From a virus, in IMG/VR virus record IMGVR_UViG_3300008113_000234, positions 1-35,266 of that record: DNA of 35,266 nucleotides, one strand, 5' to 3'. The first letter of the stretch is position 1. Each line of letters opens with the position of its first letter. Shown here in pieces: positions 2,119-4,940 of this stretch. Below the pieces are notes generated by a model, which saw only the letters and a list, made by a program, of their open reading frames with translations, was not told the origin of the DNA and did no database searches. The position numbers were made by a program, and so were the translations under genes.

Positions 2119-4111
2119 ATGTTCCGTACATGACAGAAAGATATCTTGACTGAGACGATTCTTGATTTCGAATCGGAGACTTTATAATTTGAGTAGTATT
2201 AGAATTGTTAGTGACTGGAGCATTGACCACATTGGTCTTATTACCACCACCTCCACCTGCAGTAGCACTTGCATCAGCATTTGCTCTAGATCCACCTTCA
2301 ACTGCATTTGCTGGTCGTAATGCCAATCCCATCGCTGCAATTTTCTCAATAGGTAATGCAGCAATTGCTTTCACTTTCTCAGTATCAATCTGAGAGAACA
2401 TACCCAAACCACGAGCGATATTTACAACTCCAGTACCTGCTTGGTTAATTAAGTCACCCTTTTCACCAAGCATAAGCAACTGCTCAACTGGAGTCTTTTG
2501 TCCAGTTACTGCATGTAAGAAACCAGAAACCAAATTAGTGACACCAGCAACTGCTGTTCCTACTCCAAGTGCAGCCATGCCAACACCAATTGATGCTAAA
2601 CCTGCACCGACTAGCAGAAGATTGGAACCATCAAGTTTACCAATTTTTTCAAGACCATCAGACATTTCGGCAAAACCTTTACCGACTGCTTGCATCGCTT
2701 CACCAATAATATAAAGAGCACCACCCATTGCACCTAAAGCAAGTGCTCCAACAAAGATCAATGGTGCAGCAGTGCCAGCGATAGCACCGATAACTCCAAG
2801 ACCAGCAATCGCAGCCATACCTTTACCGATCGTTTCCCAGTCTAGTTCAGCAAATGTTCCAAGTGCAGCACCAATACCGTATGTTGCCAAAGCAAGAATA
2901 CCCAGTGCTAAAGATCCAGCGATGATATTACCTTTAACTTTATCAAGAGCAAGTGCAGCAACTACCAATCCACCAAGAGCAACCATACCCTTACCGATAG
3001 ATTCCCATTCAATTTTACCAAAGTTTTCGAATGATTTAGAAGCAATATAAAGAGCACCAGCAATAGCAATCAAACCAATACCGAAATTCTTCATTCCTTG
3101 TAGTGCTTTACCAAAATTACCTCCACCACCAGAGTCACCACCTTTATCTTCTGCTGGTTTTACTTTTTGGTCTGGAGAAGCACCACGAGTATTCTGTTCA
3201 ATCTTAATAAAAAGATCTTCTTGCTTTTGAGCATGTTTTTCTGCTTCAAGTGCTCGTTCTTCAGAAATACCATCATCAGCGTGTGCTTGAGTAGGAGATT
3301 CACGTTTAACAAGTCCTGCTTTAAGGTCACTCTTGGCATATTCATTGGACAAGTCATCACGTTTACTTAGAAGTCGTTTACCTTCTTTAGTCTTTGCGAT
3401 ATCTGCCTCAGACATCCCAGTATCTTTCTTAAGTTGGGATAACTCTGATTCGTTTCGCTTAATTTCTTTTGCTGTTTTATTTGCAGATTCAAATTTACCT
3501 GCAAGAGTTTCACGATTATCTTCAGATCCAAGTTTACGTTGAGTCTGAATAAACTTCTCTTTAGCGATAGACTTATTGAAGATACCACCAACATTGAATG
3601 CTTTAAGAGCAGTAACTTTAAGAGCAGACATTGAACCAAAGTTGTCCTTTAGTTTCTTGCCCATATCACGTAATCTATCACCCATCGTCTGGAATGTTTC
3701 CATTCCTTTGGCCATGTTGGCAATTGCTTTGGCTTCTTCTTTACGAAGTTGTAGATTCTCTTTTAGAGCATCATTGGCTTCTTTAATTCTTATCTTTTCT
3801 TGCTCTTTTAGTTTAATGGCTTCTTGTTTCGCCTCAGTAAACTGTTTGTCTTGAAGTTGAGCAATCAATGCTTCTTTGATATCTTTCATCATAGCAGACT
3901 GAGCAATTTGTTCAGCCAACTGTTGCTGGTTTGCTCCAGCCTGAGCCATAGAGGATTCTAATGATTTGATGGCAGTTTCGTTAGCCTTTGCCTGTTCTGA
4001 TAGTAGTTTAGAAAAGGCTGTGCTGTCCCATGCATTCACTGATTGTGAGATTGTTTGATTAAGAATTACAGCTTGATCTTTACCTGCATTCCTACTTCGT
4101 CGTTTTGCCAT
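2117..4111 (-). CDS. probable tail tape-measure protein (gp29 role)
   Basis: 664 residues. Residues 1-300 are charged, Lys/Glu/Gln/Ala-rich and mostly helical, with coiled-coil character around 90-130 and 180-300. Residues 335-530 hold several long hydrophobic Gly/Ala segments, and the C-terminus ends in a Gly/Asn-rich stretch and SPIRNQESSQSRYLSVMYG. A coiled coil followed by hydrophobic segments is typical of tape measures, which span the tail tube and set its length; T4 gp29 has 590 residues. Within the hydrophobic part a repeat is visible: WESIGKGMVALGGL (369-382) and WETIGKGMAAIAGL (425-438). The gene starts four bases after the stop of the shifted gp26 frame and has GAGG eight to nine bases before its ATG. 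A tail-assembly chaperone pair just ahead of the tape measure is the usual order in tailed phages. The alternative is another large hub or tail protein. Confidence 0.62.
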   Translation of the reverse strand: MAKRRSRNAGKDQAVILNQTISQSVNAWDSTAFSKLLSEQAKANETAIKSLESSMAQAGANQQQLAEQIAQSAMMKDIKEALIAQLQDKQFTEAKQEAIKLKEQEKIRIKEANDALKENLQLRKEEAKAIANMAKGMETFQTMGDRLRDMGKKLKDNFGSMSALKVTALKAFNVGGIFNKSIAKEKFIQTQRKLGSEDNRETLAGKFESANKTAKEIKRNESELSQLKKDTGMSEADIAKTKEGKRLLSKRDDLSNEYAKSDLKAGLVKRESPTQAHADDGISEERALEAEKHAQKQEDLFIKIEQNTRGASPDQKVKPAEDKGGDSGGGGNFGKALQGMKNFGIGLIAIAGALYIASKSFENFGKIEWESIGKGMVALGGLVVAALALDKVKGNIIAGSLALGILALATYGIGAALGTFAELDWETIGKGMAAIAGLGVIGAIAGTAAPLIFVGALALGAMGGALYIIGEAMQAVGKGFAEMSDGLEKIGKLDGSNLLLVGAGLASIGVGMAALGVGTAVAGVTNLVSGFLHAVTGQKTPVEQLLMLGEKGDLINQAGTGVVNIARGLGMFSQIDTEKVKAIAALPIEKIAAMGLALRPANAVEGGSRANADASATAGGGGGNKTNVVNAPVTNNSNTTQIIKSPIRNQESSQSRYLSVMYGT

Positions 4112-4114
4112 CTG

Positions 4115-4219
4115 TTACATCCTCTTTTTGGATTCGATTCTTTTCTTTTCTTCTTCTAGGTACTGAATCAACATAAAGACATATACTTCTCTTTCGAAGG
4201 GTATCATCTCTTCCAGCTC
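4115..4219 (-). CDS. frameshifted C-terminal extension of gp26 (gp51-like or chaperone 'T' segment)
   Basis: Directly after the eight-T run at the end of gp26 another frame stays open for 34 codons, from GAG at 4219 to TAA at 4117-4115. It encodes a compact charged helix containing MIPFEREVYVFMLIQYLEEE. It has no good start of its own: the only useful internal ATG (4207) would give 30 residues and lacks proper ribosome spacing. Reading it from gp26 needs a -2 or +1 shift on the T run, or loss of one T in the RNA, and would yield a fusion of about 274-275 residues. Lambda G/GT, P2 E/E' and Mu use such shifts just before the tape measure, which is the position here. In T4 the gene after 26 is 51. 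A base-call error in the homopolymer would also explain it. Confidence 0.55.
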   Translation of the reverse strand, partial: ELEEMIPFEREVYVFMLIQYLEEEKKRIESKKRM

Positions 4220-4940
4220 AAAAAAAACTTTGGAGTCCCTCCAGCATCTTAACATGGTGTCTGTTACATACTGGACAATCATATTCAATCTTTTTGGTAA
4301 TCTTTGGCATTGTCTCGAAGAATTGTTGAATCTTTAAGAACTGGTCTGAAGTTAGATTTTCAATAAATGATAATAGCTCTTGTTTAGTGCTTTCTTTAGC
4401 GTGAAACAACTGCTCACCATCATAAATGTAATCAATAGATAAAGCCATGATATCAAAAACTGTATCTAAGTCATTGGTATCAAAACCTTCTAACTTTTTA
4501 ATAACATCAACTGTAGGATACTTCATCACTACACCAACATCATTAAACAGTTCAATCTTATTTGTATGACCCTCACCTTTTTCTACAGTTACTGTGGATA
4601 AATCAATACGAACTACAGATTTGGCTTTTTCATTTTCTTCACCATGATCTAAATCACAGGAAAATGTTAAATCAACAGTTTCACCAACAGATTTACCACG
4701 GATCTGAGTAAACATATACTCTAGATCAAATGTTGCTAGTTTCTCAACATCAAGTTTATCTTGTACACAAGTCTTGACAATTCCCTTTAGGGTTTCAATC
4801 ATTGTTACTACATCTTCAGATTGCTGAGCAATCAAAAGTGCTTTCTCCTCTTTAACGAGGAATGGACGATATCTTACTGTCGCTCCACTTGAAGGTACAA
4901 CCATTGTGTAGGTTGGCGTATTCATCATCGGCAAAGCCAT
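4218..4940 (-). CDS. 26: baseplate hub subunit gp26 / tail assembly protein
   Basis: 240 residues; T4 gp26 has 208. It matches the family of T4 baseplate hub proteins (PF12322 type): an N-terminal YTMVVPSSGATVRYRPFLVKEEK segment, split here as YTMVVPSSG (11-19) and RYRPFLVKEEKALL (23-36), a central beta-rich part, and a C-terminal cysteine knuckle CPVCNRHH (222-229). T4 gp26 is needed for hub assembly. The strong ribosome site GGAG (seven bases before the ATG) lies inside the end of gp16. The 3' end carries eight consecutive T (4227-4220) overlapping the stop codon, leading to the shifted ORF described separately. The neighbours gp16 and the tape-measure gene fit a late structural operon. Confidence 0.8.
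   Translation of the reverse strand: MALPMMNTPTYTMVVPSSGATVRYRPFLVKEEKALLIAQQSEDVVTMIETLKGIVKTCVQDKLDVEKLATFDLEYMFTQIRGKSVGETVDLTFSCDLDHGEENEKAKSVVRIDLSTVTVEKGEGHTNKIELFNDVGVVMKYPTVDVIKKLEGFDTNDLDTVFDIMALSIDYIYDGEQLFHAKESTKQELLSFIENLTSDQFLKIQQFFETMPKITKKIEYDCPVCNRHHVKMLEGLQSFF
4220..4227 (-). promoter_or_regulatory. T8 slippery run at the gp26 stop codon
   Basis: On the minus strand the end of gp26 reads CAA AGT TTT TTT TGA. The eight T let a Phe-tRNA on TTT re-pair after a shift of -2 or +1, or allow polymerase slippage. The -1 frame closes after a few codons, whereas the -2/+1 frame stays open for 34 codons. This makes it a candidate recoding site. Confidence 0.5.

What the first reader, a model, noticed from the sequence alone, without database searches (positions are those of the whole stretch)
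4115..4240. T8 run at the gp26 stop may produce a gp26-fusion protein just before the tape-measure gene
On the minus strand gp26 ends CAA AGT TTT TTT TGA. The frame reached by -2 or +1 slippage stays open for 34 codons with a compact charged helix (MIPFEREVYVFMLIQYLEEE) and stops four bases before the tape-measure ATG. It lacks a plausible start of its own. In lambda (G/GT), P2 (E/E') and Mu a frameshifted tail chaperone sits just ahead of the tape measure, and in T4 gene 51 follows 26. The run would therefore make T4-type gp26/gp51 a hidden version of the same recoded chaperone pair. Loss of one T from the RNA or DNA would also fuse the two frames.
Basis: partly seen in the sequence, partly recalled or inferred. 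Interest (0 to 1): 0.82.

Follow-up and report, generated by a model that had tools for sequence, protein, structure and literature searches.

The report
Frameshifted tail chaperone, broken in window
This marine T4-like phage locus encodes a tail-assembly chaperone made in a short and a long form by a -1 ribosomal slip, as intact relatives show; the strategy is already published for T4-like phages, and the odd frame seen here comes from an 82-base deletion unique to this record.

Summary
The T8 run and the open shifted frame are real. gp26 (PF12322) ends AGT TTT TTT TGA, and the frame beyond it matches the gp51 family (phrog_634, E 2e-10). But the window lacks exactly 82 nt directly after the T run. 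Two otherwise near-identical contigs from other samples have them, and the deletion junction occurs nowhere else in IMG/VR. In all 251 testable relatives the gp51 domain lies in the -1 frame, not -2/+1. Of 204 distinct junctions, 187 carry U UUU UUN in the correct phase; synonymous shuffles give 83 on average, 104 at most. A Shine-Dalgarno-like motif sits 10 nt upstream. Independent starts for gp51 are nearly absent. gp26's N-terminal domain resembles the HK97 tail assembly chaperone. T4 holds the two forms as separate genes, 26 (short) and 51 (long). Vladimirov et al. 2022 (not held; seen through citing papers) already identified the T4-like tail chaperones, the short/long gene pairs and poly-T shift signals, so this is a new member of a known kind.

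The parts
4218..4940 (-). gp26-like short tail assembly chaperone (TAC-N), 240 aa
   Evidence: PF12322 E 2.7e-60; phrog_150 E 4e-65; AlphaFold model N-domain matches HK97 tail assembly chaperone 2ob9, Z 7.5, 84 residues
4237..4242 (-). Shine-Dalgarno-like GGAGGG; GGAGG ends exactly 10 nt upstream of the slippery heptamer
   Evidence: 5-nt SD match in 119/187 relatives against 59 mean, 79 max in synonymous shuffles; 103 of the 119 at a spacing of 10 nt
4220..4227 (-). T8 run holding the -1 slippery heptamer U UUU UUU (4227..4221) directly before the 0-frame stop
   Evidence: 187/204 distinct relatives carry U UUU UUN in phase, 83 mean and 104 max in synonymous shuffles
4219..4220 (-). junction of the window-specific 82-nt deletion (removes 27 codons of the gp51 domain)
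   Evidence: L366/L378 are 99.8-100% identical on both sides but hold the 82 nt; junction absent elsewhere in IMG/VR
4115..4219 (-). remaining C-terminal part of the gp51-like TAC-C domain, ELEEMIPFEREVYVFMLIQYLEEEKKRIESKKRM
   Evidence: phrog_634 E 2e-10; identical to the end of the -1 frame product of L001/L002
2117..4111 (-). tape measure protein, 664 aa, immediately downstream
   Evidence: phrog_4372 tail length tape measure protein, E 8.3e-14

Best explanation
The locus is the tail assembly chaperone (TAC) locus of an uncultivated marine T4-like phage related to cyanophage-type myoviruses. Most ribosomes stop after ...QSFF and make the short form (gp26, TAC-N). A minority slip back one base on U UUU UUU, helped by a Shine-Dalgarno-like GGAGG 10 nt upstream and, in the window's clade, perhaps by a stem starting about 7 nt after the heptamer, and read on through about 60 codons to make the long form (gp26-gp51, TAC-NC). 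Short and long forms would coat the tape measure and recruit tail-tube subunits as in lambda. Shown here: conserved heptamer, conserved frame, SD-like motif, lack of starts, fold match, and the short/long gene pair in T4. Inferred: that slippage occurs in cells, its efficiency, and the chaperone function. The window's own copy has an 82-nt deletion that breaks the -1 frame; it is most likely an assembly or amplification artefact, or else a defective variant.
For: gp51 domain in the -1 frame in 251/251 loci with room, no other frame. U UUU UUN in 187/204 distinct junctions (synonymous shuffles mean 83, max 104); the other 17 are N NUU UUN. In 184/184 FF junctions the codon before ends in T, through five codons (AGT, TCT, GAT, AAT, GCT), and the first Phe is TTT, though the rest of the genes use TTT for only 67% of Phe. 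The 0-frame stop lies 0-2 codons after the heptamer. Substitutions downstream follow the -1 frame: 2796/718/156 at codon positions 3/1/2. 51/204 have no ATG/GTG/TTG before the conserved core and only 1/204 has any with an SD. SD-like motif enriched at 10 nt. gp26 N-domain resembles HK97 TAC 2ob9, Z 7.5, next 4.6. T4 gp26 = PF12322 only; T4 gp51 = PF12322 plus the extension (phrog_634 E 1.2e-23). P2's E+E' record shows the same layout, -1 on TTTTTTG before the tape measure. Deletion.
Against: No protein or frameshift assay. Related sequences are not independent, so shuffle comparisons overstate significance. The downstream stem has one compensatory pair and seven invariant pairs and is absent in sister clades. 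97/204 junctions have some ATG near the 0-frame stop, so low-level reinitiation is not excluded there. Z 7.5 is middling. No sequence-level match of the C-terminal domain to P2 E'.
Confidence: 0.9

Rival explanations
1. gp51 is a separate small protein made by reinitiation or translational coupling at the overlapping stop, as most cyanophage records annotate it.
For: S-PM2, P-SSM4, nt-1, phiM7 and others are annotated with a separate gp51 start; 97/204 junctions have an ATG near the stop.
Against: 51/204 have no start codon at all, 1/204 has a start with an SD; the frame is always -1; the heptamer is held at nucleotide level; T4 gp51 is a fusion of both parts.
Confidence: 0.05
2. Transcriptional slippage on the T8 run supplies the frame change instead of the ribosome.
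For: T8 is long enough for some RNA polymerase slippage (general knowledge); one inserted U gives the same product.
Against: 129/204 junctions have a short run broken by C (U UUU UUC), yet keep the -1 frame; the SD-like motif at 10 nt acts on ribosomes.
Confidence: 0.03
3. The window's deletion is a real natural allele that switched to a -2 or +1 shift (as Mu uses -2) and still makes a shorter long form.
For: T8 allows -2 and +1 re-pairing; the downstream frame is open to its stop.
Against: The deletion removes 27 codons with three of the seven invariant residues of the domain, is absent from all other contigs including two near-identical ones, and -1 slippage on it ends after a few codons (sequence).
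Confidence: 0.03
4. T-run miscount: seven T and a simple in-frame gene.
For: Homopolymers are error prone.
Against: T8 or T6C at the same place in relatives from 54 to 100% identity and 31 contigs with the exact T8 sequence; with the 82 nt in place, seven T does not join the frames.
Confidence: 0.01

Closest known systems
[quoted passage not shown] seen only through PMC10885494 and PMC12846349)
   Same: Short and long chaperone forms; poly-T -1 shift signals in some T4-like phages; separate short and long genes in others.
   Different: The marine clade, the T8 site, the SD-like motif at 10 nt, the stem and the window's deletion are details I could not compare, as the paper is not held.
P2 E/E+E' tail chaperone (-1 frameshift)
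   Same: -1 shift on TTTTTTG near the end of the short gene, long form, tape measure directly after.
   Different: No significant sequence similarity of the C-terminal domain; E is 91 aa against 240 aa here.
Lambda G/GT and HK97 gp13
   Same: Short/long chaperone layout before the tape measure; fold of gp26 N-domain like HK97 gp13.
   Different: Different slippery sequence (lambda G GGA AAG, general knowledge); gp26 has an extra C-terminal half with a CPVC...HH zinc-ribbon-like motif.
T4 genes 26 and 51
   Same: Same two products: PF12322 alone and PF12322 plus extension.
   Different: Made by duplication as two oppositely oriented genes, no frameshift; 26/51 of Straboviridae group together at support 100 apart from frameshift lineages.

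Membership tests
Frameshifted tail assembly chaperone (lambda G/GT type) | Short gene with slippery heptamer near its 3' end and an extension in the shifted frame | tested here: met
   187/204 U UUU UUN, 251/251 in -1; in the window itself the frame is broken by the deletion
Frameshifted tail assembly chaperone (lambda G/GT type) | Lies between tail tube and tape measure genes | tested here: met
   Tape measure directly downstream; tail tube protein upstream with small terminase between
Frameshifted tail assembly chaperone (lambda G/GT type) | TAC-N fold | tested here: met
   2ob9 HK97 TAC, Z 7.5 over 84 residues, next 4.6; middling score
Frameshifted tail assembly chaperone (lambda G/GT type) | Both products made, long form at low ratio, binding tape measure and tube | not testable with these tools
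   Needs expression and mass spectrometry
T4 gp26/gp51 family | PF12322 domain and phrog_634 extension | tested here: met
-2 frameshift as in Mu | Extension in the -2 frame in intact relatives | tested here: not met
   always -1

The most novel reading that the evidence does not exclude
The deletion is a real allele in nature and the phage still makes a shortened long chaperone by -2 or +1 slippage on T8, showing how the recoding mode can switch within one clade.
Probability: 0.03. Interest if true: 0.65.

Novelty: new member of a known kind. Interest (0 to 1): 0.3.

Why it matters
It extends to a large uncultivated marine clade the rule that T4-like phages also use the frameshifted tail chaperone, and gives a quantified set of 204 distinct junctions. 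It implies that 'gp51' in cyanophage records is usually a frameshift extension and not a separate gene. It also shows how a single deletion in one assembled record can look like an exotic recoding event.

Tried and rejected
Own genome search: only the 35,266-base record itself is held. Deletion junction in IMG/VR: none. Scan with alignment A2: no stretch conserved enough. P2 E' relatives: all identical, no profile possible; hhalign of the extension with P2 E' not significant. Pfam on the extension: nothing above cut-off; a lone DUF6760 hit at E 0.11. Solved structures by sequence: none credible. BFVD search of the extension: no match with E below 0.1. A downstream RNA stem as a family-wide signal: only in the window's clade. 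Literature searches before the PRFect reference list showed no prior report. An early count of 12 'A AAU UUU' sites was a first-match artefact: all of them also hold U UUU UUN.

Full report
Observation. gp26 (4940..4218, minus) ends CAA AGT TTT TTT TGA; T8 lies at 4227..4220, and the frame that starts at GAG 4219 is open to 4115, just before the tape-measure ATG at 4111. gp26 is PF12322 (E 2.7e-60). The shifted peptide matches the C-terminus of phrog_634, gp51 'baseplate hub assembly catalyst' (E 2e-10), and the next gene matches a tape measure family.

The window carries a deletion. In 78 IMG/VR relatives with a readable junction (54-100% gp26 identity) the T run is followed by TAG, TAA or TGA and then about 80 nt that the window lacks. 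Against L001 and L002 the gap is exactly 82 nt with identical flanks. Over longer stretches L366 is 99.98% identical over 4,115 nt and L378 99.8-100% over 4,232 nt, with the 82 nt as the only indel, and the two come from different samples. The junction sequence was found in no other contig, while the intact T8-TAG sequence is in 31 contigs. The breakpoints share one T; the right one falls in the 3' arm of a predicted stem. 82 is 1 modulo 3, so a -1 relation becomes +1/-2. With the deletion, a -1 slip would give only a few codons, and 27 codons of the conserved domain, with three of its seven invariant residues, are gone. I read it as an artefact or a defective allele; reads would decide.

Frame in relatives. 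With named phage records and three IMG/VR sets, a profile of the extension was found in the -1 frame in 251 of 251 loci with room, never in another frame. The frame is open through the domain in 250; in the remaining one, L260, the stop counted is the gene's own end. Of 204 distinct junctions, 187 hold U UUU UUN in the correct phase: C 129, U 55, A 2, G 1. Random synonymous recoding of the same peptides gives 83 on average and 104 at most. In all 184 junctions encoding FF, the previous codon ends in T through five different codons and the first Phe is TTT. The remaining 17, mostly Ackermannviridae, have N NUU UUN. The stop follows the heptamer by 0-2 codons. Downstream substitutions fall at -1-frame codon positions 3/1/2 as 2796/718/156. 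The sequences are related, so the shuffle comparisons describe an excess and are not probabilities.

Stimulators. A 5-nt SD-like match upstream is present in 119/187 against 59 expected (max 79), 103 of them ending exactly 10 nt before the heptamer, the spacing known to stimulate -1 shifting in E. coli dnaX (general knowledge). In the window's clade a 9-bp stem begins about 7 nt after the heptamer, paired in all 13 distinct sequences with one compensatory change; sister clades lack it, so I give it little weight. Reinitiation is unlikely as the general mechanism: 51/204 have no start, 1/204 a start with an SD.

Function and origin. The AlphaFold model of gp26 (pLDDT 85.9) has as best solved match the HK97 tail assembly chaperone, Z 7.5 over 84 residues of a 107-residue chain, the next at 4.6. 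The extension is predicted all-helical. T4 gp26 is the short form alone and T4 gp51 the short form plus extension; the genes are oppositely oriented, and in Klebsiella phage KP15 they are in tandem. A tree puts the 26/51 genes of T4, RB49, KP15, Konradin and VP8 in one group (support 100) apart from frameshift lineages that include the Straboviridae nt-1, AsFcp4 and VmeM32. The simplest reading is that a duplication replaced recoding in the T4 group; this is inferred.

Known or new. A 2016 review said G-T frameshifting is conserved 'except T4' (PMC5009743). Vladimirov, Gautam and Davidson 2022 then identified the T4-like chaperone genes; the paper is not held, but PRFect states that some T4-like phages carry a short and a long gene (PMC10885494), and the Adele paper cites poly-T shift signals in T4-like TAC-N genes (PMC12846349). 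The core is thus published; what is added is a larger sampling, the nucleotide-level statistics, and the demonstration that the window's unusual frame is a record-specific defect.

Noticed in passing
L263:1501-2795: In Klebsiella phage KP15 gene 51 (long form) lies directly before gene 26 (short form) on the same strand, unlike T4's divergent order; it may keep the tandem state left by the duplication.
   Followed up: partly
window:4943-5356: A small terminase gene (phrog_445) sits between the tail tube gene and the tail chaperone gene.
   Followed up: no
L268:985-1155: P2 E' (FHWPPSELYPMS) and the gp51 extension (YHKYSLAELEEMIP) share a motif by eye; hhalign gave no support. One extension also hit DUF6760 at E 0.11.
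   Followed up: partly
L264:1289-2756: Acinetobacter phage Konradin's record already names gp26, gp51 and gp28 'tape measure protein assembly chaperone'.
   Followed up: no
L082-L101, cyanophage, vibriophage and aeromonad phage records: gp51 is annotated with inconsistent starts or not at all (VmeM32, AsFcp4); it is likely an extension reached only by -1 shift.
   Followed up: yes
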